From assembly GCA_017555765.1 (NCBI GenBank), contig JAFZFT010000062.1:1-37279 (forward strand): a DNA stretch of 37,279 nt, in the 5' to 3' direction. The first letter of the stretch is position 1. Every line of letters begins with the position of its first letter. A program made the position numbers and the translations under genes. The notes beneath the pieces were generated by a model. It made no database searches and was not told the DNA's origin. It was given only the letters and a program-made list of their open reading frames with translations. Of this stretch, positions 2,179-27,013 are shown piece by piece. Source of the DNA: Clostridia bacterium. Lineage in GTDB: Bacteria; Bacillota; Clostridia; Oscillospirales; Acutalibacteraceae.

Positions 2179-2372
2179 GGGCCGAGGGCCGAGGGCCGAG
2201 GGCCAAGCATAGTTAAGATGAAAATATGTTTTACTTTGTCAGCTATATTGAAGCTGAAGAGCTTAATCCCTGAAGTATAAATCAAATATATTTACATTCT
2301 GTAAAATTCTTCGCGGGTACAGATTATCTGATTATCCTTTGTAAGCGCGTCGGCCCTTGGCCCTTGGCCCTT
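2179..2372. repeat. Heptamer-array inverted pair between dgt and dnaG
   Basis: On the plus strand 2179-2206 is four 7-bp units, GGGCCGA three times then GGGCCAA. At 2352-2372 there are three units of GGCCCTT, the reverse complement of AAGGGCC. The two arrays face each other across about 145 bases of A+T-rich sequence with no gene. The right array overlaps the dgt stop codon (2371-2373): on the minus strand the stop TAA is T followed by the AA of the first AAGGGCC unit. The left array ends about 27 bases before the dnaG start, just upstream of its ribosome binding site. The element therefore fills the whole gap between the two genes. Confidence 0.85.
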
Positions 2373-3369
2373 ACTTGCTCCAGCCGCTGGGGATGAAGTA
2401 ATCGTTATATACCTTAAGGGCATAGGAGTCGCTCATACCGGCTATGTAGTCGCAGGCGGCTCTCTGAGCACCGTCACGCCAGGCTATTTCTATGTACTCA
2501 TTGGGAAGCTCATTGGGATTTTCCTCGAAGAAGTGGTAAAGGCGCTGAATCATTGCCATTGCCTTACCCTCCTCGCTTTTGCAAACGGGATTTGTGTATA
2601 CTCTGTCAAACATAAACTCGTGGAGTATATCGAAGGCACTCTGCACATTACTGTCAAAGGCGACCTCTCCGTATGTATTCTCTATAACTGATGTAACCAT
2701 TGTATCGATGCGCTGACTCTTTCTTTCGCCGAGATATTTTCTCGCTTCAACGGGTATGTTGCCCTCGGTGATTACTCCCGCACGGACTGCATCGTCGATA
2801 TCGTGGTTTATGTATGCAATTTTATCGGCAAGCTTTACTATTCTGCCCTCAAGAGTCTGAGCCTCCTCACCTCTTGTGTGGCAGACAATTCCGTTTCTTA
2901 CCTCGTAGGTAAGGTTAAGTCCCTTGCCCTTGTTTTCGATATAATCAACTACTCTCAGGCTCTGCTCATAGTGCTTGAAGCCGCCGGGTACAACCTCATT
3001 GAGGGCTCTTTCACCCGCATGGCCGAAGGGAGTATGTCCAAGGTCGTGACCGAGTGCGATTGCTTCAGTTAAATCCTCGTTGAGACCGAGTCCCACTGCA
3101 ATTGTTCTTGCAATCTGTGAAACCTCGAGAGTATGGGTAAGTCTTGTTCTGTAATGCTCACTGTCGGGAGCAAGGAAAACCTGAGTTTTGTGCATAAGAC
3201 GTCTGAATGCGGCGCAGTGGATGATTCTGTCCCTGTCACGCTGATAAGCTGTCCTTATAGGACACTCAGGCTCGAAGGTCTGTCTGCCTTTCGTATTTTC
3301 GCAAAGCATAGCATACTCCGAAAGAGTGTTTCTTTCGTTAAGGAGAGTTCTTTCTCTTATCTGTGCCAC
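2371..3369 (-). CDS. dgt: dGTP triphosphohydrolase-like HD-domain protein
   Basis: 332 codons. An HD-superfamily phosphohydrolase that in characterised relatives cleaves dGTP or other dNTPs to the nucleoside and tripolyphosphate. The N-terminus has the family signature RDRIIHCAAFRRLMHKTQVF, then YRTRLTHTLEVSQIAR with the first metal-binding His and GHDLGHTPFGHAGE with the HD pair. Length matches the short Gram-positive Dgt class. The start is a GTG at 3369 with AAAGGCGG upstream. Substrate preference cannot be read from sequence. It is the first gene of the dgt-dnaG-rpoD cluster, whose order is conserved in many Clostridia. Its stop codon is overlapped by a heptamer repeat. Confidence 0.92.
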   Translation of the reverse strand: MAQIRERTLLNERNTLSEYAMLCENTKGRQTFEPECPIRTAYQRDRDRIIHCAAFRRLMHKTQVFLAPDSEHYRTRLTHTLEVSQIARTIAVGLGLNEDLTEAIALGHDLGHTPFGHAGERALNEVVPGGFKHYEQSLRVVDYIENKGKGLNLTYEVRNGIVCHTRGEEAQTLEGRIVKLADKIAYINHDIDDAVRAGVITEGNIPVEARKYLGERKSQRIDTMVTSVIENTYGEVAFDSNVQSAFDILHEFMFDRVYTNPVCKSEEGKAMAMIQRLYHFFEENPNELPNEYIEIAWRDGAQRAACDYIAGMSDSYALKVYNDYFIPSGWSK

Positions 3370-3447
3370 AAAAACCGCCGCCTTTCGTACTGATTTCTGA
3401 CGTGTTGAATATATATACGCTTATTTTTGTGTTTTCCCTCTTTTAAA

Positions 3448-4068
3448 TTATATTTCGCAATATTTTTCGTCCATTACCTCGCAGGAGAATTTTCCGCAGG
3501 ACACATCTATGAGCCTTGCTTCAAAGTAAGGAAGCTTTTCCTCAGGGATTCTGAAGATAACCTCCACCGCATCGGTGAATACTGTATCCTCGACGATGCC
3601 GCCCTCCTCACAGATTAAAGGTACGAGTCTGCCGTAGAAGTTATAGTCGGACTTGACGCTGACTATCTTGCAAAGGGACATTGTTATAACCTGTCCCGCA
3701 TCGAGAGCAATTTTCGAGCCGTGAGAGTAGGCTCTTACAAGTCCGCCCGCACCGAGCATTATACCGCCGAAGTAACGGGTAACAACAACGCAGCAGTCAA
3801 CTACCTCCTGCTTGATGATTACATCAAGAGCGGGCATACCTGCAGTGCCTGAAGGCTCACCATCATCGCTGAAGCGCTTTATCTGACCTTCCTTAAGGCT
3901 GTAGGCATAGACATTGTGGGTAGCATCCCAGTGCTTTGATTTTATCTCGGATATAAAGGCGGTTGCTTCCTCAACTGTCTTGACCGGCTTTACATAACCT
4001 ATGAAGCGGGATTTCTTGGTGATGAATTCGTCGCTTGATTCGTACTTTACGGTTTTGTAGCTTGCCAC
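3448..4068 (-). CDS. yigZ: YigZ/IMPACT family protein
   Basis: 206 codons from a GTG start at 4068, preceded by the ribosome binding site AAGGGGG. An upstream in-frame ATG at 4113 lies inside the rpmE terminator and is rejected as the start. The family signature RFSDDGEPSGTAGMPAL is present, and KKSRFIGYVKPV and TRYFGGIMLGAGGLVRAYS match the N-terminal UPF0029/IMPACT domain; the remainder is the small C-terminal ferredoxin-like domain. Eukaryotic IMPACT regulates GCN2; the role of the bacterial protein is unsettled, with ribosome or nucleic-acid links proposed. It follows rpmE closely, with an apparent terminator between them, so expression may depend on readthrough. Confidence 0.9.
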   Translation of the reverse strand: MASYKTVKYESSDEFITKKSRFIGYVKPVKTVEEATAFISEIKSKHWDATHNVYAYSLKEGQIKRFSDDGEPSGTAGMPALDVIIKQEVVDCCVVVTRYFGGIMLGAGGLVRAYSHGSKIALDAGQVITMSLCKIVSVKSDYNFYGRLVPLICEEGGIVEDTVFTDAVEVIFRIPEEKLPYFEARLIDVSCGKFSCEVMDEKYCEI

Positions 4069-4093
4069 GGCGTTACCCCCTTTTCGTAAATAA

Positions 4094-4129
4094 ATGAAAA
4101 TAAGACGGAACAAAAAATTTGTACCGTCT
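4094..4129 (-). terminator. Intrinsic terminator after rpmE
   Basis: The arms 4103-4111 and 4121-4129 (AGACGGTAC on the minus strand against GTTCCGTCT) pair over nine positions with one mismatch around an A/T loop. Read on the minus strand the stem is followed by the U-rich run TTATTTT. It lies 20 bases past the rpmE stop and ends only about 30 bases before the yigZ start. Confidence 0.75.
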
Positions 4130-4149
4130 AAATTCTTTAATTAAGCCAA

Positions 4150-4359
4150 TTATTTGTTCTTTGCAAGATTGATACGCTTATTGAACTTATCAACACGTCC
4201 GCCTGTATCTACAAGCTTCTGCTTACCTGTGAAGTAGGGATGGCAGTTTGAGCAGATATCAACGTGCATATCCTTCTTTGTTGAACCAGTCTTGATGATT
4301 GCACCGCAAGCGCACTTTACTTCTGTCTGTTCGTAACCGGGATGAATACCGTTTTTCAT
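4150..4359 (-). CDS. rpmE: 50S ribosomal protein L31
   Basis: 69 codons, typical for L31. It begins [20 protein letters not shown] and contains the four-cysteine zinc motif (CAC near residues 16-18 and CSNC near 36-39), so it is the zinc-binding C+ type. It also has the conserved HPYFTGKQK segment. L31 bridges the 50S and 30S subunits at the central protuberance. The start is ATG at 4359 after AGAGGTG. It has its own promoter upstream and a terminator downstream, so it is probably a monocistronic unit or weakly linked to yigZ. Confidence 0.98.
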
Positions 4360-4405
4360 TATGTGTCACCTCTTTCGGACATTATTATTTACATTAACGC
4401 AAGGC

Positions 4406-4434
4406 ATTGTATCACATCGAGAATGAAAAATCAA
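4406..4434 (-). promoter_or_regulatory. Vegetative promoter for rpmE
   Basis: On the minus strand a -35 TTGATT (4434-4429) is separated by exactly 17 bases from a -10 TACAAT (4411-4406). The -10 is about 47 bases upstream of the rpmE start codon. Spacing and hexamers fit the sigma-A consensus. Confidence 0.7.
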
Positions 4435-4463
4435 CATTTTTTTGAAAATTCTTTATTTTATTT

Positions 4464-7400
4464 TCAATTTTTTTCTTTAATCTCGATTTCACGTGATAAA
4501 TGGAAGGAATAAAGCAGGGTCTGCTTCACCTCCAGACCCGTACAAAGCTCAAGAGCCTTCTTGTAAAGAAGCACCTGAGAGCTGTACTTTTCTCTGAATT
4601 CCTCTTCGCTGTCGATAAGGTCGGTTTTGTAGTCGATGACAACAAGCTTACCATCCTCCTCAAAGGCACAGTCGCATGCACCCTGAATCATAACCTTTTC
4701 ATCGGAGAATTCATCAACGTTTTCATATATATCATTTATGGGTACCTCAATGATAAAACGCTTTTCCCTGAGCACTCTGTCGGAGGCGAGAATTCTTGAA
4801 AGAAGTCCGCTCTTAAGGAATTCGCCCACATTTCTGCGGTTGATTGCCTTTGCCTCAGCTTCGGAGATAAGTCCCTTTTCGAGAAGGCTCTGTATCTCAC
4901 CCTCAAGGTCTGTCTTTGCCCTTTCATAGTCAGCGTACTGTGCAAAGCGGTGGGTCGCAGTACCCTTCTGTGCACCCGTAAGTCCGCCCTCACAAAGGAA
5001 TGCAGGCTTTGAGGAAGCAAAATACTCCCTGTCTATGCTGCCCTTGTCAACCGAGGAGGCAGTCCTCTTCATATTTATACCTGAGAGAGCTTCGTACTTA
5101 TATCTGAAGCTTCCTCTTTCTCTGAGCATTGTGAGGAAGCCTTCATCGATGCCACTCTTACCTGATTCTTCCGCAGAAGGTACACAAAGAGGCTCACCCT
5201 CACTTATAAACACCTTTATCGGGGATTCGCAGGGAAGTACGAAGCTGTCATCTATGTTTGCAATTTCACGAAGAGCCTCACTGTCCTTATGTCTTAAAAG
5301 AGCGGTGAGCATCCACTGACCGAAGCCGCTTGCCTGAGAAATAGCATAGGGCATTACGCTCTTGCTTTCACGCACAAGGTCAACTCCGCACTTTGCAACG
5401 GAGGAAGCAATATTCTTACCCGCATAAACAAGCATAAGCTTTTCCTTTGCTCTTGTAAGGGCAACGTAAAGCACACGAAGCTCCTCACTGAGCATATCAC
5501 GGTGCATTGCAAGCTTTACCGCAGTACGGGGAAGAGTTTCAAACTGCTCGTAGGTGTCTATGTCACGGTGTCTTATGGCGATGCCCGCCTTTTTGCTCAT
5601 GATAAGGCTCTGCGCCTCGTCCTTTATGTTGAATTTTCCGTTGCAGTTTGCAAGAATGCACACAGGGAATTCAAGTCCCTTTGATTTGTGGATTGTCATA
5701 ATTCTGACAACATCAGCATTACTGCATGCATTGAGAGCACCTGTAAGATCCTGCTTCTGCGAGGAGAGGCGGTCGATAAAGCGGATAAAGCCGCTAAGGC
5801 CCATATAGCCTGACTTTTCGTACACTGACGAGTAGTCGAGCATAAGGCGGAGATTCGCACTGCCGGCACCGGATTTATCCACTGCGTCAAATATGCAGGG
5901 AAGTGCGGTCTGCCCGTATATTTCGTTAAGAAGCTCCCCTACGCCGAGGCAGATACTCATTGAACGCCATTCCCTGAGCTTTTCAAGGAAGGCGGTACAT
6001 TCTGCGTCCGACCTTCTTTCGCTTTCAAGAAGGCAGGAATATACACTTGCCTTGCGGTTGAACTTCTTTATTTCTGCCACCTTATCGGTAGTGAAGCCGA
6101 AAACGGGAGACATCATTACACTTAAAAGAGGAATATCCTGAGCGGGATTATCGATGATTCTGAGGATATTCAGTACGAGAGCAATTTCGTTGGAGGCAAG
6201 GAAGTTGTCGGACACCTCGATAAAGCAGGGTATCCCTTCCCTTCTGAAGGTCTCGGCATATACAGTACCGTTTGTGGAGATTCCACGCATAAGTACGGCA
6301 AAATCTCTGTAGCTGACGGGTCTTTCAATGCTTCCGTCCCTGACGGTGTAGCCCTCTGCCATAAGTCTTTTTATCTGTGAGGCTATGTACCTTGCCTGAT
6401 ATTCGTGGGCGGTTTCCTCGTTTTCGTCGGCGGCACCCGTATCAAGAAGATGTATCTCTGTTGCCGCTTCGTCCTTTTCACTGTAAGCGGCACTTGCGGT
6501 GAGCCTTTCCTCACTGCCGTACTCAATATCGCCACTCTCACGGCTCATAATCTGCTCAAAAATAAAGTTGATTATATCTGTTACACCCTTGCGGCTACGG
6601 AAATTATTCGCAAGGATTATCTTCGCAGGATAGTTGTCCCTTTCGGGGTCATAGATATCAAGCTTATCCTTGAGACCCATAAAGATTTCAGGCATAGCCT
6701 GTCTGAAGGAATAGATGCTCTGCTTGACATCGCCTACCCTGAAAAGATTGTTGCGGGAAATGGACTCGAAAAGAAGCGACTGTGCCGCATTGGTATCCTG
6801 ATATTCGTCTATGAGGATTTCATCGTAGCACTCGCTTGTCCTTGCGGCGAGCTCTGTCCTCTCATAGCCTTCTTCCGTACTCTTTACAAAAAGAGACAGA
6901 GTCATATGCATTATATCGGAAAAGTCTGCGACCTTTCTGCTCTTTTTCATACGGGAATATATATCGGAATAAAGCTGTGTTGCCTCGGTAAGGCTCTTAA
7001 TCGCACCCGAGAAATATTCTATATCATCCTTGTAGTCCTTTTCACTGCAGCAGAGAAGCTCTTTTATCTTTTTGGTTATGTTTTCCTTACCATGGTCTCT
7101 GAGTGCCGCAAAATAAACTATCTGCGGCTCTTCCTTCATTTCCTTGGGGGTTTTTCCCTTGGTTGCCGCCTTGAAACGAAGAAGTGCGGAGCGCACATCG
7201 TCCCAGCTGCCCTCTTCTATTCTCGAAAGGATATACTCACACTGTGCTATATCGGTGCTTACTGCGGTGTTGTAGATTTTTTCAAGCACCTCGTCACCTG
7301 CTATATCCTCAAGGAGGCGTCTGAAAACGGAAAGGCTGTATTCTATACCCTGTCTTACCCTTTCAAGAACTATTTTACCGTGTATGCTTTCCTTCACATC

Positions 7401-11341: not shown

Positions 11342-11383
11342 ACTTATCTCTCCTTTCCTAGTGCGCAAGTACATTATACACTA

Positions 11384-11412
11384 ATTATACATCCAAATTT
11401 GCCTTTTTTCAA
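11384..11412 (-). promoter_or_regulatory. Vegetative promoter for addBA
   Basis: On the minus strand TTGAAA (11412-11407), a 17-base spacer and TATAAT (11389-11384) form a near-consensus sigma-A promoter. The -10 lies about 42 bases before the addB start codon. It diverges from another near-consensus promoter 17 bases away on the plus strand. Confidence 0.8.
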
Positions 11413-11429
11413 TTGAGTTCCTATTTTTA

Positions 11430-11458
11430 TTGAAATTTCCGTCGGTTTATTATATAAT
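11430..11458 (+). promoter_or_regulatory. Vegetative promoter for the phosphatase-ymdB operon
   Basis: TTGAAA (11430-11435), a 17-base spacer and TATAAT (11453-11458). It is 35 bases upstream of the histidine-phosphatase start codon and is the divergent partner of the addBA promoter. Confidence 0.8.
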
Positions 11459-11493
11459 AAGAGATATTATAATTATAATGGAGCTGTTTTACT

Positions 11494-14536: not shown

Positions 14537-14776
14537 CAATGCGCAATGCCCAATTCGCAATGCGCAATTGCGGGCAACCTCCGTATAATCGGAAGGTCAA
14601 TCGCCGCCCAATAAACATTGCTATAAAAAATCTTTTCAGATTATCAGCTTGACAGAAACATAACAATTTTAAAAGCGGAATTTTATCAGCTTTACTTGGT
14701 GGGAAGCGCGCAAATCATTGATTGATGCTATCCCGCAATTGCGCATTGCGAATTGCGAATTGCGAATTGCGAATTG
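14537..14776. repeat. MITE-like heptamer-bounded inverted repeat element between the lipoprotein gene and recG
   Basis: Starting directly after the stop codon, 14537-14571 is a run of 7-bp units of the CAATGCG/CAATTCG type. At 14735-14776 the opposite strand carries the same type, four copies of CGAATTG among them. Perfect 24-base inverted arms lie at 14551-14574 and 14732-14755. The ~157-base interior is A+T-rich and has no ORF of note. The element ends about 10 bases before the recG ribosome binding site, so it occupies the whole 259-base gap. No transposase is present; whether it moves is unknown. Confidence 0.85.
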
Positions 14777-17311: not shown

Positions 17312-17316
17312 GAAAG

Positions 17317-17345
17317 TTGCAAACTTCATTACTTTATGATATAAT
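17317..17345 (+). promoter_or_regulatory. Vegetative promoter for the M23 peptidase gene
   Basis: TTGCAA (17317-17322), a 17-base spacer and TATAAT (17340-17345), starting six bases after the luxS stop and 36 bases before the next start codon. It separates the M23 gene from recG-luxS. Confidence 0.75.
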
Positions 17346-17380
17346 GTTATGCAGATTTTTACGGAAAGGCAGGTGAGCAA

Positions 17381-19366: not shown

Positions 19367-19370
19367 AAAA

Positions 19371-19397
19371 GACTCCCTTGATTGGGAGTCTTTTTTT
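19371..19397 (+). terminator. Intrinsic terminator after the M23 gene
   Basis: Perfect 7-bp stem GACTCCC (19371-19377) / GGGAGTC (19384-19390), 6-base loop, then seven T residues. It is flanked by A's on the left, so it could also stop minus-strand transcription coming from the SGNH gene. Confidence 0.92.
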
Positions 19398-19474
19398 AGG
19401 GATTATGGACTAGGGAATAGGGGCTGACTACTGTACGTTGCCGAAGGCACCCCCGATTCCTGATTACTGGCTAC
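19398..19474. repeat. Degenerate heptamer-array inverted pair between M23 and SGNH genes
   Basis: Right after the terminator the plus strand reads in 7-bp steps (GGGATTA, TGGACTA, GGGAATA, GGGGCTG). The facing right arm (19452-19474), read on the minus strand, steps as TAGCCAG, TAATCAG, GAATCGG. The small centre contains GTTGCCGAAGGCAC, a short hairpin. The right arm covers the SGNH stop codon (19464-19466) and its last codons (S-S-Q). The units are more diverged than in the other elements, so the call is less certain. Confidence 0.55.
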
Positions 19475-20588
19475 TTGTCTCCTCTTCTTTTCTCTTTTCG
19501 TCAGCTCTCTGCCAGCCTTCTTTGCTCATTGCAAAGTAGTTTTCAGATGCCTTTGCCCACATTTCGTAGCCTTCCTCGCCTCTGTGGTCAACAGTGGAGT
19601 AGCCGTTTTCAACAAGGAAGCGGCACACATAATCGGTCATCTTTTCACCGCCTGCGAGATTCATATGACCGTCGTCGTAAAAGTCCTTTGTGGGGTCAAT
19701 ACCCGCCTCTTCGAACATTTCTCTTGAGCCGAAGTCTATTGTGTCATAGCCTCTGTCGGAACAGTACTTGAGAATAGTTGTAAGCTCCTGCTGAATTTCG
19801 AGATTTCTCAGTGAAGGTATGCTGATGAATACTACCTTTAAGTTTTCCTCTTCGCAGAATTCGAATACTCTTTCAAGCTCACTTTTCTGGAAATCGTCGA
19901 GGTAGTTATAGCCTTCAAAATCAAGATTGGGCATACGGGGAGTCATATCCGCTATATTGAATGCATCATTTGATTTATGCGCTCCGAGATAGTCCTCCAT
20001 AAGACCTACTGTTCTGTCAGCGGCGGAGAAGCCGTCAATCCAGCCGCCGTGTATATCAAGAAGCCTTGTGTAGATTGAGGGATCATATCTGTTTATCTTG
20101 CCGTCTTCAGGCTCACCGTAGTATTCGTATATTCTGTCGGCATAACCGAGAAGACTCTCAAAGGTTTTGAACTTTGCTTCAACAGAGCACATTGCGGTAC
20201 ATGCGCCAACAAGATGAGAATCGCCTACACTTCCGTAAAGGTTTTCTCTTCTGAGGGAATGTACGTCAAAAACGATGTATTTAAGATCGTGATTCTGCTT
20301 TATGTAATCAACATAAGGGTATATTGCCGCAAAGGGCTGCATCGCAGTACCCATATGATAGGTTGCGACTCCGTAATTTTCGAAGCCGACTGCACTTACC
20401 CACGCCGCCGTTACGGTACTCGGGCCTAAGACTATACCGTCAATTGTACCTGCGGGTACTGATTCAACGGTGTTTATATTCATAACCTCCATAACCTCAG
20501 GTACCTGGAGAGCGTAAACCACACCTGAAAAAGTAAGTGCAAAAACAAGTATAAGAGCTATTAACTGAAACCAAAGCTTATTTTTCAT
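19464..20588 (-). CDS. SGNH-hydrolase-like exported protein, probable acyltransferase partner of the MBOAT
   Basis: 374 codons. A signal anchor is visible at residues 3-27 (LWFQLIALILVFALTFSGVVY). The following domain resembles SGNH/GDSL folds of the AlgX/AlgJ/DltD kind: IVLGPSTVTAAW puts a serine (S57) at the nucleophile position and D305-x-x-H308 in FYDDGHMN matches the C-terminal catalytic dyad block. Immediately upstream (14-base gap) is an AlgI-like MBOAT. By analogy with AlgI/AlgX and PatA/PatB pairs, the MBOAT passes an acyl group across the membrane and this protein transfers it to a cell-surface glycan. Acceptor and acyl group are not readable from the sequence. The final codons lie in a heptamer-type repeat. 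Confidence 0.75.
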   Translation of the reverse strand: MKNKLWFQLIALILVFALTFSGVVYALQVPEVMEVMNINTVESVPAGTIDGIVLGPSTVTAAWVSAVGFENYGVATYHMGTAMQPFAAIYPYVDYIKQNHDLKYIVFDVHSLRRENLYGSVGDSHLVGACTAMCSVEAKFKTFESLLGYADRIYEYYGEPEDGKINRYDPSIYTRLLDIHGGWIDGFSAADRTVGLMEDYLGAHKSNDAFNIADMTPRMPNLDFEGYNYLDDFQKSELERVFEFCEEENLKVVFISIPSLRNLEIQQELTTILKYCSDRGYDTIDFGSREMFEEAGIDPTKDFYDDGHMNLAGGEKMTDYVCRFLVENGYSTVDHRGEEGYEMWAKASENYFAMSKEGWQRADEKRKEEETSSQ

Positions 20589-20603
20589 TTTACAGGTACC
20601 TCC

Positions 20604-22184
20604 TTAGAACTTCTGATATACGAAATCCGAGCCGTATGCTCCGAAAACGAGTATGAAGCATATTGCAAGGGAAACAAGGAAAAGCTGAAGTATAAGAGGA
20701 CACTTGTCAAGAGTCTCTCTTATCTTTACTCCCCTTTCCTGAAGAATACTTACAACAAAGAGTATTGCTACAACGAAGAGCAGTACCATAATCGCCCTGA
20801 GCATAAGACCGAGCTTTAAGATTGTACCGTCAAAGAAAATCTGCGGATTAAAGTCTGAGAACATATTGCCTATCATCTTAAGTGCTACTGTGAGATTATC
20901 CGCACGGGAGAAGATTCTGCCGATGCTTACAAGCATAAAGGTACGGAAAATCTGGAAAAGCTTCCACAGTACGTTATCTTCCTTTATGTGAAGCCTTGTG
21001 AGTGTCTTTTTGTAAATAGGCTCAAGCAGAATACTGCCTGAAATGATAATGCTGTTCCATAAGCCGTAGCCTACGTACTTCATATTTGAGCCGTGCCAGA
21101 TACCTACGAGCATAAATGCAATGAAGGATGCAAGAAAGGTGGGGAGAAGTCTGCCGACCGTATTTCCGAAGACCTTTCTTGTCTTTTTGCCCATAGCCGC
21201 AAACTTCTTTGAAAGTGACAAGGGATAGAACACATAGTCTCTCATCCATGCGCCGAGAGTAATGTGCCAGCGACGCCAGAATTCCGATACGGAGCGTGCA
21301 AAATAGGGACGCTCGAAGTTTATTGCCATTTCAATGCCGAAGACCTGAGCAACACCGCGGATAAGATCCATACCGCCTGAGAAGTCGGCATAAACCTGAA
21401 GACCGTAGGCAATCGCACCCACAAGAATTACAAAGCCGCTGTATTTTTCATGGCCGTTGAAGACCTCGTTGGCTATAACTCCCGCATACTCGGCAAGGGT
21501 AAGCTTCTTTACGAGACCCCAGAGCAAAAGCTCAAGTCCGTGCTTGACATTTTTCTCGTTAAAGCGGTTTCCTTCGAAAAGCTGAGGTGCCATACGGTCA
21601 AAACGACCTATGGGGCCCTGTACCATCTGCGGAAAGAAGGATACGAAAAGAGCAACCCTGAGAGGGTTCTTTTCCGCACGCTGTTTACCTCTGTATACAT
21701 CAATAATATAGCTTGTTGCCTGAAGGGTGTAAAAGGAAATACCCAAGGGCATATACATATCTATGTAAGGTGCGTCCTTATTAAGACCGAGGAAATTGAG
21801 CACATTGAAGGACAACTCAAGGGTAGTATTAAGATATTTGAAAATGAAAAGAAGCACAAAGCAGATAACAAGTCCGAGAGAGAGTACCTTCCTCTTATCC
21901 TTCTGCAAGGTAGCCTTCAGCGCTTTTTTCTCATCCCTTGTGATATCGGGATGCTCATTCAGGTACAGCTTATTAGCTTCCGTCTTTTTATCAAGCTGAA
22001 GAGCCACAAACCACACAACAAGTGCCGCAGAGTACATAACTCCGGTGCCTATAAGACCCGACTTAACATAGAAATATACACTAGAAGCAAGAAGCACAAG
22101 CCAGCGGTGCTTCAAGGGGAAAATATAGTATACCACTGCGGCAATGAGCCACAGGAAGGTAAACTCAAGTGATACAATATCCAT
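20604..22184 (-). CDS. AlgI-type MBOAT family O-acyltransferase
   Basis: 526 codons, typical of AlgI-like membrane-bound O-acyltransferases. It has around ten hydrophobic segments. Family signatures are MPLGISFYTLQATSYIIDVYRG, FPQMVQGPIGRF, YADFSGGMDLIRG, FWRRWHITLGAWMRDYVFYP (H307) and LVGIWHGSN with the proposed catalytic H364. It moves acyl groups, usually acetyl, from a cytoplasmic donor to an exported acceptor together with the downstream SGNH protein. AGGAGG is 14 bases from the ATG, an unusually long spacing; AGGTT and AACCT between them can form a small hairpin. The leader also holds a TCGGA/TCCGA hairpin. It is first in a two-gene operon with a clear promoter. Confidence 0.93.
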   Translation of the reverse strand: MDIVSLEFTFLWLIAAVVYYIFPLKHRWLVLLASSVYFYVKSGLIGTGVMYSAALVVWFVALQLDKKTEANKLYLNEHPDITRDEKKALKATLQKDKRKVLSLGLVICFVLLFIFKYLNTTLELSFNVLNFLGLNKDAPYIDMYMPLGISFYTLQATSYIIDVYRGKQRAEKNPLRVALFVSFFPQMVQGPIGRFDRMAPQLFEGNRFNEKNVKHGLELLLWGLVKKLTLAEYAGVIANEVFNGHEKYSGFVILVGAIAYGLQVYADFSGGMDLIRGVAQVFGIEMAINFERPYFARSVSEFWRRWHITLGAWMRDYVFYPLSLSKKFAAMGKKTRKVFGNTVGRLLPTFLASFIAFMLVGIWHGSNMKYVGYGLWNSIIISGSILLEPIYKKTLTRLHIKEDNVLWKLFQIFRTFMLVSIGRIFSRADNLTVALKMIGNMFSDFNPQIFFDGTILKLGLMLRAIMVLLFVVAILFVVSILQERGVKIRETLDKCPLILQLFLVSLAICFILVFGAYGSDFVYQKF

Positions 22185-22254
22185 ACAGGTTTCCGTAACC
22201 TCCTGATTTATTTCTCATCGGACAGAATCCGACCTTTTTCAACACGACCCGCCA

Positions 22255-22283
22255 ATTATAGCAAAGTGATTTATCAAAGTCAA
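22255..22283 (-). promoter_or_regulatory. Vegetative promoter for the MBOAT-SGNH operon
   Basis: On the minus strand TTGACT (22283-22278), a 17-base spacer and TATAAT (22260-22255). The leader of about 65 bases contains a TCGGA/TCCGA hairpin before the ribosome binding site. The rest of the 22185-22445 gap is A+T-rich with no gene seen. Confidence 0.8.
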
Positions 22284-22384
22284 TCTTGCTTACATTTTTT
22301 TAACTATTTTATAAAACTGACTTTTTATGCTTCATTTTTTTGTATTTTTTAACGCAGATATTTTCTTTTATAGTATATAGAAGT

Positions 22385-22413
22385 TGACATAAAGTGCTAT
22401 TCGTGATATCCTT
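22385..22413 (+). promoter_or_regulatory. Promoter for the GtaA-like gene
   Basis: TTGACA (22385-22390) with a 17-base spacer to TATCCT (22408-22413), 33 bases before the start codon. The -35 is perfect and the -10 keeps TAT and the final T, so moderate strength is expected. Confidence 0.6.
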
Positions 22414-22445
22414 AACTGAATAGAATTTTTCAGGGAGGATTTATC

Positions 22446-24368
22446 ATGTTATTACCCGCATATCCCATCGTAACCGTTGACCCTCATTTCAGTATCTGGT
22501 CAAAGGCTGAGCGTCTCACTTCAGATGATACCAAGCAGTGGTACGGACAGAAAAAACGTATCGAAGGTACTGTAAGCGTTGATGCTGATACATACCGCTT
22601 CCTCGGAAACGGCAAGGAAACTGCTCTTTTCCAGGTTTCGGAAAAAATCGAGCCTTATGTAAGTACATATACATTTGAAAATGCCGCAATCCGTCTTAAG
22701 CTCACAACCTGGTCACCCTTCCTTTTCTGTGACCTCCATCTTTTAAGCCTTCCCGTTGCATTCCTTGACACTGAGGTTGAGGTACTTGACGGCAAGGAGC
22801 ATACAATCAGCGTTAAATTCACTGCTTTTGACGAGCTTTGCTACAACAACAAAAAGAAGCAGATTACTAAATATACAGACTCCTACGAAAACGTACGCCT
22901 TGTTAAAATGGGCTGTACAAAGCAGACTCCGCTCAGAGATTCAGGCGACGAATTCTCCGCTGACTGGGGCTATTACGCTTTCATGGGCGGCGAATGTACT
23001 GTATGCAAGGAAGGTATCAGCACGAAGAGCCGTACTGTATTCGGAAAAGGTCTCACCTTCAACACAGTTATCGGCTATGATGACGTTTACTCAATCGAGT
23101 ACTTCGGCGAACAGCTCAAGGGTCTCTGGACAGAGAAATTCAAGAGCATTGATGAAGGTATGAAGTACTGCCTTGACAACAAGGACGAAATCTTCACAAA
23201 GCTTATGGCTCAGCAGGAAATGATTCTTGCAGACAGCGAGAAATTCGGCAAGGATTATCAGAACATCCTCACCGCAGCTGCTAGACAGGTGCTTGCAGCT
23301 CACAAGCTCGTAAGAAGCAGCAAGGGCGACCTTCTTTATATGTCAAAGGAATGCCATTCAAACGGCTGTATTAATACCGTTGACGTTTCATACCCCGCTA
23401 TGCCCATGTATCTTATTTATACTCCCGAGCTTGTTAAGGCTATGCTTGTCGGTATCTTCGAATTTGCCTCTATGCCCTTATGGACTGCGGATTTCGCTCC
23501 CCACGATATAGGCAGATACCCCATCGCAAACGGTCAGGTTTATGCTCTTAACATTCACAACCACCTTCTCCCCCACTCATATACCTACAGAAAGGTATAT
23601 AAGAGCAACAAGTTCGGCATGTATATGCCTCAGTTCCAGATGCCCGTTGAGGAATGCGGTAATATGATTCTTCTGACCTATGCTTACTATATGGTATCAA
23701 AGGATATCGACTTCCTTAAGGAAAATTCCGCAACTCTTAAGAAGTGGGCCGATTACCTCATAATGAAGGGTGTAGTGCTTGACAATCAGCTTTGCACCGA
23801 CGACTTCGCAGGTCACAGCAAGAAGAATGTTAACCTTGCTATCAAGGCTGTTATGGGTATTGCGGCTTACAGCAGAATCGCTGATATTCTCGGTGAGGAA
23901 AACACCTATATGACAAAGGCAAAGGAATATGCAGACGAGCTTGTTTCCGTATGCGGCAAGGGCCTCGACTTCCTTCCCTTCAGCGTTGACAAGAAGGATT
24001 CATGGAGCCTTAAGTACAACCTCGTATGGGATATTCTCTTCGACTTCAACCTCTTCGACAAGGCCATCTATAAGGCAGAAAGCGAGAAGTACCGCATTGA
24101 AATGAACACCTACGGTACTCCCCTCGACTATCGCCGTACCTTCACAAAAACTGACTGGGAGCTCTGGGCAGCATGTCTTGATGAAACTCAGGAAAATATC
24201 GGTCTTCTTTCAAAGTGTATCTGCGACTATCTTGCAGACACCGAGGACAGAAACTGCTTCTCTGACTGGGTTGAGACAAAGAAGCCCAAGCAGAGCGGAT
24301 TCGATCACAGAACTGTTCAGGCAGGCTTATGGATGCCGGTGCTTTTCTCAAAATTCGGAAAGTTTTAA
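22446..24368 (+). CDS. GtaA/DUF4965-type glutaminase-family protein
   Basis: 640 codons. The N-terminus PAYPIVTVDPHFSIWSKAE and the later blocks TADFAPHDIGRYPIANGQ, MPVEECGNMILLTYAY, CTDDFAGHSKKNVNLA and SLKYNLVWDILFDFNLF match the DUF5127/DUF4965/DUF1793 architecture shared with fungal glutaminase A. The segment YGTPLDYRRTFTKTDWELW is especially characteristic. The fold is an alpha/alpha toroid related to glycoside hydrolases, so a carbohydrate substrate is as plausible as glutamine. There is no signal peptide, unlike secreted fungal GtaA, so it should be cytoplasmic. AGGGAGG precedes the ATG. It is monocistronic and ends two bases before a repeat. Family call is good; reaction uncertain. 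Confidence 0.85.
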   Translation: MLLPAYPIVTVDPHFSIWSKAERLTSDDTKQWYGQKKRIEGTVSVDADTYRFLGNGKETALFQVSEKIEPYVSTYTFENAAIRLKLTTWSPFLFCDLHLLSLPVAFLDTEVEVLDGKEHTISVKFTAFDELCYNNKKKQITKYTDSYENVRLVKMGCTKQTPLRDSGDEFSADWGYYAFMGGECTVCKEGISTKSRTVFGKGLTFNTVIGYDDVYSIEYFGEQLKGLWTEKFKSIDEGMKYCLDNKDEIFTKLMAQQEMILADSEKFGKDYQNILTAAARQVLAAHKLVRSSKGDLLYMSKECHSNGCINTVDVSYPAMPMYLIYTPELVKAMLVGIFEFASMPLWTADFAPHDIGRYPIANGQVYALNIHNHLLPHSYTYRKVYKSNKFGMYMPQFQMPVEECGNMILLTYAYYMVSKDIDFLKENSATLKKWADYLIMKGVVLDNQLCTDDFAGHSKKNVNLAIKAVMGIAAYSRIADILGEENTYMTKAKEYADELVSVCGKGLDFLPFSVDKKDSWSLKYNLVWDILFDFNLFDKAIYKAESEKYRIEMNTYGTPLDYRRTFTKTDWELWAACLDETQENIGLLSKCICDYLADTEDRNCFSDWVETKKPKQSGFDHRTVQAGLWMPVLFSKFGKF

Positions 24369-24370
24369 TC

Positions 24371-24585
24371 AATGCGCAATTCGCAATGCGCAGAACCTCT
24401 CCGTCACCCTTCGGGTGCCACCTTTTCCTCCGGAAACGGGCACACCCTCGTCACTTCGTGACACTCCCTCTAACAGAGGGAATTACCTTTCAGGAGAGGC
24501 AAGGTTAAGGGTTGCACCTTCGGTGCTATTATATCGCAATCGCGGGGAACAATTCAGTAACAGAAAAGTTATACCCGCCGGGTAA
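24371..24585 (+). repeat. Hairpin-rich ~215-bp repeat, left copy (after the GtaA-like gene)
   Basis: It begins two bases after the stop codon with heptamers AATGCGC, AATTCGC, AATGCGC, then carries short stems with 3-base loops: CACCC-TTC-GGGTG (near 24405-24417), GTCAC-TTC-GTGAC (24450-24462), CCCTCT-AAC-AGAGGG (24466-24480) and GCACC-TTC-GGTGC (24514-24526). It ends near a CCGCCGGGTAA segment. The reverse complement of 26801-27013 matches it closely along its whole length. The apparent open reading frame through it is a shadow of the repeat. No terminal protein gene or transposase is inside. Confidence 0.93.
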
Positions 24586-24605
24586 GGTATTACAACATAC
24601 AACAA

Positions 24606-24645
24606 AAAGTCGTCCGAAGAAAATCGGGCGACTTTATTTTTTGTA
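24606..24645. terminator. Terminator-like hairpin, probably bidirectional
   Basis: AAAGTCGTCCGA (24606-24617) pairs with TCGGGCGACTTT (24624-24635), one G-T type mismatch, with T-rich sequence on the right and A-rich on the left. It would stop minus-strand transcripts of the 125-codon gene and plus-strand readthrough of the GtaA-like gene. Its stem is nearly the same as that at 25332-25363. Confidence 0.75.
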
Positions 24646-24658
24646 TGAATTCATTCGG

Positions 24659-25036
24659 TCATTTTATTATATTAAACAATACAGAATCTGATATAAGATA
24701 GCAACTGCTTTCCTTGTGCCAACCATATACACATTCAAATAAAGCTTCGTTGCTTTGTGCGTTAAAACTGAAAAGCTTCATATTTTTTGTTTTTCGTATA
24801 ATATCAAAGTTTGTGAAGCCATATAAAAGCTTATAATTTTCATATCGGTTTAAGACCTGAAAGCCAAAACTGAAACCTATATTATCAACACAGTTCAGAA
24901 AAGATAAAAGCTCATCGAATTCATTGTCGGGAACAGAAATTTCCCAAAAGTATTTTAATTTTCCGATTTTTTGATTAGTAACATAATATCTCATATAGGA
25001 TTCAAATCTTTTCTCACTGAAGGGCTTTTCAATCAT
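24659..25036 (-). CDS. Hypothetical protein (125 codons), accessory island
   Basis: I do not recognise this family. The ATG at 25036 is preceded by AGAGAGG nine bases away and by a well-formed promoter. The product is soluble, without a signal peptide or membrane helix, and rich in Phe, Tyr and Asn (for instance NIGFSFGFQVLNRYENYKLLYGF). It carries a few scattered cysteines and no obvious catalytic motif. Base composition is clearly more A+T-rich than the flanking housekeeping genes. It faces a small Cro/CI-type regulator gene across an 11-bp direct repeat that overlaps its own promoter, so repression by that regulator is likely. Possible roles such as an effector or immunity-type protein are speculation. 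Confidence 0.7.
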   Translation of the reverse strand: MIEKPFSEKRFESYMRYYVTNQKIGKLKYFWEISVPDNEFDELLSFLNCVDNIGFSFGFQVLNRYENYKLLYGFTNFDIIRKTKNMKLFSFNAQSNEALFECVYGWHKESSCYLISDSVLFNIIK

Positions 25037-25066
25037 TATATATTACCTCTCTGTTTTAATAGATAA

Positions 25067-25097
25067 ATTATAGTCAATATATTAAGTATAGTCAATA
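25067..25097 (-). promoter_or_regulatory. Promoter of the 125-codon gene with embedded direct-repeat operator
   Basis: On the minus strand TTGACT (25095-25090), a 17-base spacer and TATAAT (25072-25067). On the plus strand the 11-mer TATAGTCAATA occurs at 25069-25079 and again at 25087-25097, an 18-bp period. One copy covers the -35 and the other the -10, as expected for an operator bound by the adjacent helix-turn-helix protein. A possible plus-strand -10, TATGAT, lies near 25105. Confidence 0.65.
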
Positions 25098-25122
25098 GGC
25101 AACATATGATAAAATTTATTCG

Positions 25123-25332
25123 GTGATTGATTTGATTAGTTATAAGCCTTTCTTTCAGACCTTACTGAAAAGAAACATTACAGAATATAACTTAATATAT
25201 AAGCAGGGCTTTTCTGCAAACACAATTCACAGAATGAAAAAAGGTCTGCCCATAAGCACAAAGACGATTGATGCCTTGTGCTATGCTTTGGATTGTGAAA
25301 TATCCGATATAATAAAATTTGAAAAAGAATAA
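25123..25332 (+). CDS. Small Cro/CI-type helix-turn-helix regulator (HTH_26-like)
   Basis: 69 codons from GTG at 25123; a TTG at 25132 with GGTGA five bases upstream is an alternative start. The pattern YKPFFQTLLKRNITEYNLI, then FSANTIHRMKKGLPISTKTI, then DALCYALDCEISDIIKF, is that of the small single-domain YozG/HTH_26 regulators. No other domain is present. It diverges from the 125-codon gene and probably represses it, and perhaps itself, through the repeated TATAGTCAATA site. A terminator overlaps its stop codon. Confidence 0.82.
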   Translation: MIDLISYKPFFQTLLKRNITEYNLIYKQGFSANTIHRMKKGLPISTKTIDALCYALDCEISDIIKFEKE

Positions 25333-25364
25333 AAGTCGTCTGATTTTCTCAGGCGACTTTTTTG
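25332..25364 (+). terminator. Intrinsic terminator after the HTH_26 gene
   Basis: AAAGTCGTCTGA pairs with TCAGGCGACTTT around a short T-rich loop, followed by a run of T's. It begins inside the stop region of the regulator gene. A-rich sequence on its left means it can also terminate the converging secreted-protein gene. Confidence 0.85.
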
Positions 25365-25375
25365 TATATTCTATG

Positions 25376-26422
25376 TTATTTCTGAATAACTGTTTCAATA
25401 AAGCTATTAACTAGTGCTATAAACATTTTGATGAACTCATATAAATCATCGGAAATTTTTGTGAAGGTGTCTTCAAGCTTGCTTCCTTCATCAACTATTG
25501 TATTGGTTGCATTACATTCGATACATTTTGCAGTTTTTGTTCCGTCTTTTCTTGTTGTGGCATTATTATCGGAAATATATTCTCCCCAATTATGAGCAAC
25601 TGCTTCATCGCTTGTTTTGAAGCAAAAGCTACAGCTGATACTGTGAGTTCCGTCGAAATTGTCTTTCACAGATGTAAAATCATGATCGTCATATATACAA
25701 CAATTATAAATATTGCTCCAATAGTTTATATAATCCGATGCTATAAGGTCAAACTCACTCTGTGAAACCTCTGCAGGATTCTCATAGCCCTTTCCGAGGT
25801 AGCCATCTGCTGCCCAAAAAGACTCATATGCCGCTTTTTTCTTCTCATTGAGAATTGACATTTCTTCTTCGCTGAGACCCTTGGAATAATTCTCTAATCT
25901 GTATGCAAAATCCGGATTTATAATTTCAAACTTATAACAATCATATACGTCTATAACCGTGGTTAAGCCTAATCCTTCATAGAAGGCTTTATATTCATCA
26001 ACATAGAACGAAAGTTCCTTAATTATAGAGTCAAGTTCATCCTGCTCTGTTTCTATATATACTTTTGAATACAGTTTTTCAATCATGTCTCTAGTAGAAA
26101 TATTTTTATCCTCAATAAAACGACTAAAACGCACATTATCAAAAGCTTTTCCGTTTAAAGAATAAACACTACACTCTATCGTCATACCACCAATCAGAGC
26201 TTCATAATACCCGCTGTAATCTGCCCTTCTAACCTCAACTCTTCCGTTGCAGGAAGGGCAAATATAATAACCGGTGTCTCCCATTACGCTATCTATATCA
26301 CCCTCGGGTCTTACGAGCGTGCTTTCATTGAAAATATGTGCACACTCCTCATGAGCAAAAGCTACAGGAATAGCAGATATAACTATAATGACTGCGACTA
26401 AAATTGTTAATAATTTTTTCAT
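25376..26422 (-). CDS. Secreted protein with repeated CxxC pairs, function unknown
   Basis: 348 codons from ATG at 26422, chosen because GAAAGGAG precedes it and a signal peptide follows (MKKLLTILVAVIIVISAIPV, cleavage likely after AFA near residue 23). The longer in-frame ORF to 26548 would put the start beyond its own promoter. The mature protein has a CPSC pair near residues 55-58, a mainly acidic helical middle, and a C-terminal part with CSFC, HNWGEYISDNNATTRKDG and CIEC. That last arrangement resembles short zinc-ribbon-like repeats in clostridial surface proteins (inference). The end (YEFIKMFIALVNSFIETVIQ) is amphipathic. It diverges from an XRE regulator over a double palindrome. No enzymatic motif recognised. 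Confidence 0.8.
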   Translation of the reverse strand: MKKLLTILVAVIIVISAIPVAFAHEECAHIFNESTLVRPEGDIDSVMGDTGYYICPSCNGRVEVRRADYSGYYEALIGGMTIECSVYSLNGKAFDNVRFSRFIEDKNISTRDMIEKLYSKVYIETEQDELDSIIKELSFYVDEYKAFYEGLGLTTVIDVYDCYKFEIINPDFAYRLENYSKGLSEEEMSILNEKKKAAYESFWAADGYLGKGYENPAEVSQSEFDLIASDYINYWSNIYNCCIYDDHDFTSVKDNFDGTHSISCSFCFKTSDEAVAHNWGEYISDNNATTRKDGTKTAKCIECNATNTIVDEGSKLEDTFTKISDDLYEFIKMFIALVNSFIETVIQK

Positions 26423-26443
26423 TTTATTTTCTCCTTTCAAGCA

Positions 26444-26491
26444 GATGTTACGAAATGTAACATCTTTATTGTAACAAACTGTTACAATAAA
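26444..26491. promoter_or_regulatory. Double-palindrome operator between the secreted protein gene and its XRE regulator
   Basis: Two abutting inverted repeats. 26444-26464 is GATGTTAC-N5-GTAACATC. 26465-26491 is TTTATTGTAACA-AAC-TGTTACAATAAA, perfect over 12-base arms. All four half-sites share GTAAC/GTTAC, and the two centres are about 24 bp apart. The second palindrome lies inside the minus-strand promoter. This is the layout of a cooperative autoregulatory operator for the regulator encoded 17 bases to the right. Confidence 0.85.
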
Positions 26492-26496
26492 GTCAA
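26468..26496 (-). promoter_or_regulatory. Promoter of the secreted protein gene
   Basis: On the minus strand TTGACT (26496-26491), a 17-base spacer and TACAAT (26473-26468). The palindrome 26465-26491 fills the spacer and touches both hexamers, so a bound regulator would block RNA polymerase. Confidence 0.75.
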
Positions 26497-26507
26497 GGGG
26501 TGATGCT

Positions 26508-26711
26508 ATGAAAGGATTAAAGCTGATAAGAAAAAGTCGCAATCTCAATCAGCAAAAAGTTGCGATGGACTTAAACATCTCCCGCGAGGCACTCTCACAT
26601 TATGAAAACGGCAAGCGAGAGCCGAGCCTCGATATGCTCAACAAGCTCTCCGAATATTTTAACGTTTCAATAGATTTTTTGATAAACGGAGAAGAATTCA
26701 ATAAGAAATAA
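26508..26711 (+). CDS. XRE-family transcriptional regulator
   Basis: 67 codons, a single helix-turn-helix domain. KGLKLIRKSRNLNQQKVAMD, then ISREALSHYENGKREPSLDM, then KLSEYFNVSIDFLINGE, is a textbook Cro/CI-type domain with the recognition helix at about residues 24-33. AGGGGTGA lies five bases before the ATG. It diverges from the secreted protein gene over a double palindrome with GTAAC half-sites, so autoregulation and repression of the neighbour are likely. Ligand sensing is not evident, since there is no second domain. A terminator follows directly. Confidence 0.93.
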   Translation: MKGLKLIRKSRNLNQQKVAMDLNISREALSHYENGKREPSLDMLNKLSEYFNVSIDFLINGEEFNKK

Positions 26712-26752
26712 ACGACAGACCTTCCTGATGTGGATTGTCTGTCGTTTTTATT
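26710..26752 (+). terminator. Intrinsic terminator after the XRE gene
   Basis: AAACGACAGAC (26710-26720) pairs perfectly with GTCTGTCGTTT (26737-26747) around a 16-base loop and ends in a T run. Confidence 0.88.
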
Positions 26753-26800
26753 ATGGTTTTAAAAAGCAAGGACGCCCGATGGGCGCCCCTACGTAATTAT

Positions 26801-27013
26801 TTACTCGGCGGGTACAGCTTTTCTGTTACTGAACTGTTCCCCGCGATCGCGATATAATAGCACCGAAGGTGCAACCCTTAACCTTGCCTGCCCTGAAAGG
26901 TAATTCCCTCTGTTAGAGGGAGTGTCACGAAGTGACGAGGGTGTGCCCGTTTTCGGAGAAAAAGGGGGACCGCGTTAGCGGTGGAAGGGTCTGCGAATTG
27001 CGAATTGCGCATT
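26801..27013 (-). repeat. Hairpin-rich ~215-bp repeat, right copy (after pheT), inverted relative to the left copy
   Basis: Read on the minus strand it starts at the pheT stop codon with AATGCGC, AATTCGC, AATTCGC and continues with the same GTCAC-TTC-GTGAC, CCCTCT-AAC-AGAGGG and GCACC-TTC-GGTGC hairpins as 24371-24585. The first hairpin differs: here it is ACCGC-TAAC-GCGGT. The pheT stop TAA (27012-27014) includes the AA of the first heptamer. Just beyond its inner end, 26771-26790 holds another G+C-rich hairpin (GACGCCCGATGGGCGCCCC) not found beside the left copy. The rest of the gap 26753-26800 holds nothing I can identify. Confidence 0.93.

What the first reader, a model, noticed from the sequence alone, without database searches (positions are those of the whole stretch)
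2179..27013. Heptamer arrays of unrelated sequence begin at the stop codon of five genes
7-bp tandem arrays start at or inside the stop codon of dgt (AAGGGCC), the lipoprotein gene (CAATGCG, directly after TGA), the SGNH gene (TAATCAG), the GtaA-like gene (AATGCGC, two bases after TAA) and pheT (AATGCGC). In dgt and pheT the AA of the TAA stop is the first two bases of the first unit. Unit sequence differs but unit length, position and orientation relative to the gene are constant. This suggests a process acting at gene 3' ends, such as targeted insertion or slippage expansion at former terminators, rather than one inherited sequence.
Basis: partly seen in the sequence, partly recalled or inferred. 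Interest (0 to 1): 0.8.

Follow-up and report, generated by a model that had tools for sequence, protein, structure and literature searches.

The report
Heptamer-ended mobile elements behind stop codons
The short 7-letter repeats at these gene ends look like the ends of a small mobile DNA element whose full-length copies carry the same protein gene as the insertions that split bacterial 23S ribosomal RNA, and the same layout turns up in several bacterial phyla.

Summary
Partly confirmed. Four arrays are as described; the one at the SGNH gene is degenerate, and three of five share a unit family. Period 7 stands out in a 29% genome sample. Family A arrays begin within 3 nt of a stop in 10 of 12 elements (0.9 expected); other families less clearly. 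The arrays are not solitary repeats but the ends, usually inverted, of small elements. In this genome three array families each have a full-length member carrying one gene: the 23S rRNA intervening-sequence protein, PF05635/TIGR02436. Arrays flank this gene on both sides in 22 of 30 loci of relatives, 18 of 30 across the phylum and 18 of 19 on plasmids, mostly cyanobacterial, but only 4 of 9 in a second plasmid set; Y1-transposase loci 0 of 30. The dgt-dnaG gap holds arrays in 17 of 29 genomes, 16 of them starting at the dgt stop, with differing units. No target duplication was found; reverse transcriptases and Y1 transposases are patchy. Movement was not observed; what moves the elements is open.

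The parts
2352..2372 (-). family C array (AAGGGCC x3) at the dgt stop codon; outer end of a gene-less element
2177..2207 (+). inverted partner array (AGGGCCG units) 25 nt before the dnaG start
2177..2372 (.). whole gene-less family C element filling the dgt-dnaG gap; folds as RNA into a structure closed by the two arrays
14537..14568 (+). family A array (AATGCGC/AATTCGC) directly after the lipoprotein TGA
14570..14608 (+). subterminal module GCGGG-N-CCGCC behind the array, as at the ends of the coding copy L203
14737..14776 (-). inverted partner family A array, 19 nt before the recG start
14537..14776 (.). whole gene-less family A element (240 bp) in the lipoprotein-recG gap; gap is 43 bp or less without arrays in 16 of 30 loci of the genus
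19407..19422 (+). weak family E array (TAGGGAA type; degenerate units extend back to about 19397) behind the terminator of the 17381-19366 gene
19450..19477 (-). two to three degenerate units spanning the stop codon of the 19464-20588 gene; judged by eye, below the thresholds of the scans
24370..24392 (+). family A array one base after the gtaA TAA; single end of an element
24541..24579 (+). CGCGGG-N-CCCGCC module of that end, displaced from its array by another repeat
26992..27013 (-). family A array opening with the AA of the pheT TAA; single end of an element
26807..26845 (-). CGCGGG-N-CCCGCC module of that end, likewise displaced

Best explanation
The arrays are the terminal repeats, usually inverted, of a family of small mobile elements. 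A full-length member is about 400-600 bp: a heptamer array of roughly 4.5 units, in family A followed by a GCGGG-N30-CCCGCC module, then one gene for a four-helix-bundle protein (PF05635 / TIGR02436, the protein of 23S rRNA intervening sequences), then the same end inverted. The copies in this window lack the gene: two keep both ends (dgt-dnaG, lipoprotein-recG) and two are single ends (gtaA, pheT). Shown: this architecture; coding copies bracketed by family A, B and D arrays in the same genome; array-free gaps in congeners; different arrays at the same stop codon in different species; recurrence on plasmids of other phyla. Inferred: (i) the elements move as units; (ii) the protein, or a machinery it serves, recognises the array and stem, since unit and protein diverge together; (iii) the arrays pair in RNA as a terminal stem, as described for rRNA intervening sequences, which would help a transcript tolerate the insert; (iv) entry is into AT-rich sequence without target duplication, and copies right behind a stop codon or terminator are favoured by target choice, selection, or both.
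For: Inverted array pairs and the dispersed family B element. The gene between arrays in three congeners and its identity. In this genome L203, L201 and L199 between family A, B and D arrays. Both-side arrays in 22 of 30 loci of relatives, 18 of 30 genes in the phylum sample and 18 of 19 plasmid genes. Array in windows next to the gene against windows 500-830 bp away: 46/58 v 1/57, 40/59 v 6/59, 37/38 v 1/38, 9/18 v 1/18. Periods 5, 6, 8, 9, 10 give 0 of 30 and at most 1 of 19; Y1 loci 0 of 30. The two units of an element differ by at most one base in inverted orientation in 59 of 72 (56 of 69 without loci first picked for arrays), units of different elements in 7%; unit distance follows protein distance, Mantel r 0.40, 0 of 5000 permutations. 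Different arrays at the dgt stop in 17 of 29 genomes. Terminal stems in RNA folds.
Against: No insertion was seen to happen, and no strain-level empty site was available. Five of the nine PF05635 genes in this genome lack a bracket of arrays; 7 of 30 in the phylum sample have none, nor have 4 of 9 in the second plasmid set, among them Gemmatirosa and Azospirillum. The Bacteroidota plasmid example has one array only. In 8 of 72 elements the units match in direct orientation instead or as well, for instance Treponema L248. G010 has 55 matches to family B but no PF05635 match (genome 82% complete). No coding copy with family C or E arrays was found in this genome. The single-end copies at gtaA and pheT are not explained. 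The Mantel correlation can come from shared descent. Window genome is a draft with 4.69% estimated contamination.
Confidence: 0.88

Rival explanations
1. The elements are MITE-like copies moved by an ordinary transposase encoded elsewhere; the intervening-sequence protein is a passenger with another role.
For: Many copies are gene-less with conserved ends. G010 has family B ends but no PF05635 match. Single-gene elements without a known recombinase would be unusual (general knowledge).
Against: The gene is the only one found repeatedly between the arrays, over several phyla; its sequence and the heptamer diverge together; no target duplication in 100 paired elements; Y1 transposases are missing from several genomes with the elements and carry no arrays. 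I did not search for DDE transposases.
Confidence: 0.3
2. Reverse-transcribed elements: a reverse transcriptase primes at gene 3' ends or terminators, and the heptamers are copied repeatedly from a short template.
For: Insertions behind stop codons and terminator T-runs, no target duplication, both ends rewritten together, distant similarity of the protein to Avd of diversity-generating retroelements (E 4e-4, 20.5 bits, below the family cut-off of 80; one of three proteins).
Against: PF00078 reverse transcriptase matches occur in 6 of 33 genus genomes, this one included, and not in G002, G005, G007, G010, G013 or G016, which carry the elements. These genomes are incomplete, so the absence is soft.
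Confidence: 0.08
3. REP-type elements: solo and paired array-plus-stem units moved by a RAYT (Y1) transposase.
For: Singles and inverted doublets behind genes resemble REP/REPIN layout (recalled); one Y1 gene in this genome.
Against: The Y1 genes inspected here are flanked by other palindromes; no heptamer array within 450 bp of 30 Y1 loci; no Y1 match in G003, G007, G008, G010 and G017, which have family B matches.
Confidence: 0.03
4. Independent simple-sequence repeats grown by replication slippage at gene ends, with or without selection for a regulatory role.
For: Tandem units with small variants; some arrays outside this genus are long.
Against: Peaked array length, matched partner arrays, a shared subterminal module directly behind 11 of 17 family A arrays, the enclosed gene, and insertion relative to short gaps in congeners.
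Confidence: 0.02

Closest known systems
23S rRNA intervening sequences (IVS) with the S23 protein, e.g. that of Coxiella burnetii (PMC4990558; passages and section 16 read)
   Same: Same protein family; terminal inverted repeats that form a stem (28 bp there); similar size (428 nt); tandem heptamers (GACAGAT) upstream of the S23 start, differing in number between strains; called a selfish element in the paper.
   Different: Ours lie between protein genes, not in 23S rRNA; heptamer arrays at both ends in most; many gene-less copies. In the paper the heptamers are noted on the 5' side and are not tied to mobility.
Heptamer repeats of Xanthomonas (GGGAATC) and Nostoc (GGGGA(C/T)T) (PMC4692102; passages and section 13 read)
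   Same: Intergenic heptamers; [quoted passage not shown] 70 and 75 convergent pairs in the two Xanthomonas genomes.
   Different: The authors did not tie them to a protein and generally found no association with mobile elements; few paired repeats in their Nostoc genome. I did not test these genomes.
TAACTGA direct repeats of Beggiatoaceae, Cyanobacteria and Bacteroidetes (PMC4679880; abstract and passages read)
   Same: Intergenic heptamer arrays in unrelated phyla, some overlapping stop codons.
   Different: Read there as possible regulatory sites, mostly just before start codons in one genome; the terms S23, four helix and intervening do not occur in its main text. Not tested here.
MITEs
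   Same: Short gene-less copies with conserved ends and a full-length relative.
   Different: Ends are tandem heptamers; no target duplication found; no known transposase identified.
Avd protein of diversity-generating retroelements
   Same: Distant four-helix relative (one of three proteins, E 4e-4, 20.5 bits against a cut-off of 80).
   Different: No template or variable repeat was sought, and most congeners have no reverse-transcriptase match.

Membership tests
23S rRNA intervening sequence (IVS) | Encodes the S23 / PF05635 protein (full-length copies) | tested here: met
23S rRNA intervening sequence (IVS) | Terminal inverted repeats able to form a closing stem | tested here: met
   (predicted folds only)
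23S rRNA intervening sequence (IVS) | Lies inside a 23S rRNA gene | tested here: not met
   The elements examined lie between protein genes or at contig edges; so they are IVS-like, not rRNA IVS
23S rRNA intervening sequence (IVS) | Cut from the transcript by RNase III | not testable with these tools
   -
MITE / DNA transposon with a DDE transposase | Target-site duplication | tested here: not met
   observed at or below shuffled pairs for lengths 3-10 in 100 paired elements
MITE / DNA transposon with a DDE transposase | Transposase gene between the same ends | not tested
   No DDE family was searched for; the gene seen between ends is PF05635
REP / RAYT | Y1 (RAYT) transposase flanked by the repeats | tested here: not met
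   0 of 30 Y1 loci have heptamer arrays within 450 bp
Reverse-transcribed element | A reverse transcriptase in the genomes that carry it | tested here: not met
   6 of 33 genus genomes; draft genomes, so soft
Slippage-generated simple-sequence repeat | Free spread of copy number, no partner array, no fixed neighbour sequence | tested here: not met

The most novel reading that the evidence does not exclude
Heptamer-ended S23/IVP elements are a separate class of autonomous mobile element spread over several phyla: the four-helix-bundle protein is the mobility protein or its specificity part, it reads the heptamer array, and the two arrays are rewritten together as the element evolves. Much of the long-noted excess of heptamer repeats in bacterial intergenic DNA, perhaps including the Xanthomonas, Nostoc and TAACTGA repeats, would be their debris, and rRNA intervening sequences would be the members that landed in 23S genes.
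Probability: 0.43. Interest if true: 0.93.

Novelty: new variant of a known kind. Interest (0 to 1): 0.85.

Why it matters
It joins three puzzles that the papers I saw treat apart: what the S23 / four-helix-bundle (TIGR02436) genes do and why they are scattered, how rRNA intervening sequences spread, and why seven-base tandem repeats are common between bacterial genes. It offers a testable candidate mobility protein with its cognate ends. It also warns that such a gene inside a cas or defence operon may be an insert rather than a working part, and that an annotated gene end can fall inside repeat sequence.

Tried and rejected
RAYT/REP idea: tested and dropped. Reverse transcriptase: rare in the genus. 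Rfam at gathering threshold: a T-box in the window; a Gut-1 RNA and two tRNAs in six other stretches of this genome. Large family D/E blocks were read in six frames by eye; no gene recognised, none searched. Target-site duplication: none. Inward pairs 1.6-1.7 kb apart (L164, L166) enclose ordinary-looking genes and may be two separate elements. An exact family A module pattern over 84,980 genomes found 14 stretches in two MAGs only, so that module looks narrow; records of this genome may be left out there. The fold of the single-end copy at gtaA is not closed by its array (2 of 200 shuffles fold as well).

Rows dropped before counts. One search left out duplicate loci L171 and L174 and includes four loci first chosen for their arrays (L153, L157, L167, L168); without these the inverted match is 56 of 69. 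In one search, 27 of 60 elements were not used: 11 at contig edges, 2 inside ORF 3' ends, 14 with no outer end facing a stop; its null takes 80 bp for the body of single-end copies. One search used pairs already matched in inverted orientation. One of 20 fetched plasmid loci (L254) gave no hit to my profile and is outside the 19. I fetched 20 of 26 records of the first plasmid search and 9 of 29 of the second. Orthologous gaps: 30 loci fetched of 33 genus genomes for each of the two sites. Genes in this genome were called by my own hexamer script. The listed matches were cut by the tool, and only 23 of 64 candidates of this genome were scored.

No report of the link was found in ten library searches, of which I saw listings and opened five papers in part. 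Subscription papers and preprints are largely not held, so this is weak evidence of novelty.
Full report
What was reported. Four arrays are as described: dgt, a family-5 solute-binding protein, the GtaA-like gene and pheT. The fifth, at the gene at 19464-20588, is two or three degenerate units that the repeat finder does not list. Three of the five use one unit family, AATGCGC/AATTCGC. Two of the arrays have an inverted partner just before the next gene's start: 2177-2207 before dnaG and 14737-14776 before recG.

Not chance. I sampled the window's genome: 61 stretches with the window, 712,985 of 2,420,390 bp (the draft is 94.57% complete with 4.69% contamination). Exact period-7 runs with at least 14 matches number 21 against 0 in a Markov simulation; other periods from 4 to 24 give 0 to 3. 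A tolerant scan finds 70 arrays against 0 to 20 for periods 5, 6 and 8-13. I group the units in five families: A AATKCGC, B AATGCAR, C RAGGGCC, D CAGTAGY, E TAGGGAH.

Not solitary repeats. Arrays pair in inverted orientation around cores of mostly 150-185 bp, and the family B core is a dispersed repeat, about 245 bp with its arrays. A genome search with one family B element lists 20 near-full-length places in this genome (230 bp or more) and 63 matches in all; 12 of 33 genomes, this one included, have a match; G005 has a few long matches, and in G002, G007, G010, G013, G016 and G017 the listed matches cover only the ends. Array length is peaked: 74 of 108 family B arrays, congeners included, and 27 of 70 arrays of all families in this genome are 31-33 bp. 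In family A a GCGGG-N-CCCGCC type module follows the array directly in 11 of 17 arrays, is displaced by another insert in 3 and was not found in 3.

The gene. Inward pairs 555-595 bp apart in three congeners (G002, G013, G016) each hold one gene, the 23S rRNA intervening-sequence protein, PF05635 / TIGR02436; the only solved chain matched at E 0.01 with the L203 protein is 2rld. One of these elements sits in the dgt-dnaG gap right behind the dgt stop, another in the solute-binding protein-recG gap. PF05635 was found in 47 of 59 genomes, this one included, and nine times in this one. In this genome the copy L203:835-1402 (568 bp) lies between family A arrays, with GCGGG-N30-CCCGCC behind the left array and an inverted counterpart before the right one; L201 lies between family B arrays and L199 between family D arrays; L200 has a family A array on one side and a contig edge on the other. 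Ends of the window element 14537-14776 match the L203 ends (up to 95% over 38 nt). The other five of the nine genes have no such bracket: L024 twice, L048, L204 near a contig edge, and L202, which has an array 416 bp upstream.

How general. Thirty loci, one per genome and chosen by profile score: 22 have arrays on both sides within 450 bp, 3 on one, 5 on none, two of these five near contig ends. In a phylum sample 57 of 299 genomes, this one included, have a match; of 30 genes in 29 loci, 18 have both sides, 5 one, 7 none. A plasmid search with the L203 protein gave 26 records, of which I fetched 20: 15 Cyanobacteriota, 2 Chloroflexota, and one each of Spirochaetota, Bacteroidota and Bacillota. 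My profile found the gene in 19 of them (not in the Bacillota record); 18 have both sides and the Bacteroidota one has a single side. A second search with the L199 protein gave 29 records; of 9 fetched, 4 have both sides, 1 one, 4 none, among them the Gemmatimonadota and Alphaproteobacteria examples. Controls: periods 5, 6, 8, 9 and 10 give 0 of 30 in the phylum set and at most 1 of 19 on plasmids; 30 Y1 transposase loci give 0. Windows next to the gene against windows 500-830 bp away hold an array in 46/58 v 1/57, 40/59 v 6/59, 37/38 v 1/38 and 9/18 v 1/18. Nostoc plasmid elements L258 and L259 use the same unit as family A here.

Each element its own heptamer, the same at both ends. In 72 elements with both arrays the two units, read in inverted orientation, differ by at most one base in 59 and are identical in 34; units of different elements do so in about 7% of pairings. 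Eight match within one base in direct orientation, among them L248, L261 and L264 exactly and not in inverted orientation, so the inverted layout has exceptions. Protein distance and unit distance correlate (r 0.40, 0 of 5000 permutations), and units approach random beyond about 40% protein divergence. The unit thus turns over while the two ends stay matched, which asks for a mechanism that rewrites both together. The correlation alone could be shared descent.

The stop codon. Of 33 elements in the genome sample with an outer end facing a stop, 15 lie within 3 nt (2.16 expected on uniform sliding, 0 of 4000 simulations reach 15) and 28 within 40 nt (13.2 expected). Family A carries the 3-nt effect, 10 of 12 against 0.88; B (2 of 11), C (1 of 1), D (0 of 3) and E (2 of 6) are not significant there. 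Two further family A arrays lie inside ORF 3' ends. Several other arrays follow the T-run of a terminator (by eye, not tested). On plasmids, 8 of 13 arrays behind a same-direction gene overlap or abut its stop (-38 to +5 nt), and in 5 the stop lies within the array. Orthologous gaps show what happened. Between dgt and dnaG I fetched 30 of 33 genus genomes, 29 assessable: 17, this one included, have arrays and 12 do not. In 16 of the 17 the array begins -2 to +6 nt from the dgt stop (one at +23), with several different units; three enclose a PF05635 gene. Array-free gaps are 21-118 bp, with one of 345 bp; one 35-bp gap holds what looks like a remnant (G008). The closest species, G005 (dgt 95% identical), has another unit and a core that does not align; cores align only among G016, G017 and G021 and between G018 and G028, apart from short matches; the dgt C-terminus is similar whether or not an element follows. 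Between the solute-binding protein and recG, of 30 loci 5 have arrays within 8 nt of the stop, 2 have arrays elsewhere in the gap, 16 have gaps of 43 bp or less without arrays, 6 have longer array-free gaps and 1 could not be read. Repeated independent insertion is the simplest reading; full turnover of core and unit at an old insertion is not excluded. Short gaps limit where an insert can survive, so selection explains part of the bias; the bias of family A in long gaps suggests more.

Mechanism. One hundred paired elements show no target-site duplication of 3-10 bp, and the last six bases outside the array are AT-rich. The window element 14537-14776, the dgt-dnaG element and L203 fold as RNA into structures closed by the two arrays, more stable than every shuffle; the single-end copy at gtaA does not close this way. 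The Coxiella 23S intervening sequence has a 28-bp terminal stem, is cut by RNase III, carries the same protein family, and has tandem heptamers before the gene that vary in number between strains (PMC4990558, passages and section 16). I therefore read our elements as relatives of rRNA intervening sequences that sit between protein genes. What moves them is open. Reverse transcriptases occur in 6 of 33 genus genomes and Y1 transposases in 19 of 33 relatives, both counts with this genome, and each is missing from several genomes that carry the elements; the genomes are drafts. DDE transposases were not searched. The gene seen repeatedly between the arrays is the four-helix protein; that it takes part in mobility is inference.

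Prior work. Xanthomonas GGGAATC and Nostoc GGGGA(C/T)T repeats were reported to lie close to stop codons on the coding strand, with convergent pairs in Xanthomonas, without a link to mobile elements (PMC4692102, passages and section 13). TAACTGA repeats of several phyla were read as possible regulatory sites (PMC4679880, abstract and passages). A figure legend in PMC10910872 explains 23S rRNA IVP as a domain name in a CRISPR paper (one passage seen); plasmid loci here with the gene next to or between cas genes suggest it can be an insert there. Ten searches listed no paper whose title or abstract joins heptamer arrays to this gene as a rule.

Verdict. The arrays are best read as ends of gene-less copies of a heptamer-ended element that carries an intervening-sequence protein. 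The identity is well supported; how it moves, and why it sits behind stop codons, remain to be shown.

Noticed in passing
window 24393-24540 and 26846-26991: Another repeat (inverted copies; arms of 176 nt, 93% complementary, at 24418-24593 and 26793-26968) separates the family A array from its module at both gtaA and pheT.
   Followed up: partly
L088 61-552 and flanks: The one Y1 transposase match of this genome lies between GGGGAGACC..GGTCTCCCC hairpins; Y1 matches in G011, G012 and G019 have related palindromes nearby, a layout like RAYT and REP (the RAYT likeness is recalled).
   Followed up: partly
L042 461-538; also L007 1596, L031 5313, L008 9381: Rfam Gut-1 RNA next to a family E array in L042, and a repeated stretch without an evident gene behind family D or E arrays in these loci.
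   Followed up: no
L261, L265, L268, L254, L262, L264, L266: On plasmids the PF05635 gene, or its match, lies beside or between cas genes, restriction genes, and helicase or DUF1156 and methylase or HEPN genes.
   Followed up: partly
L008 4207-4552: Nested family B ends: array plus a short stretch is doubled on both sides, as if one element entered another at a T-run.
   Followed up: no
window 30494-30709: T-box leader (RF00230) on the minus strand.
   Followed up: no
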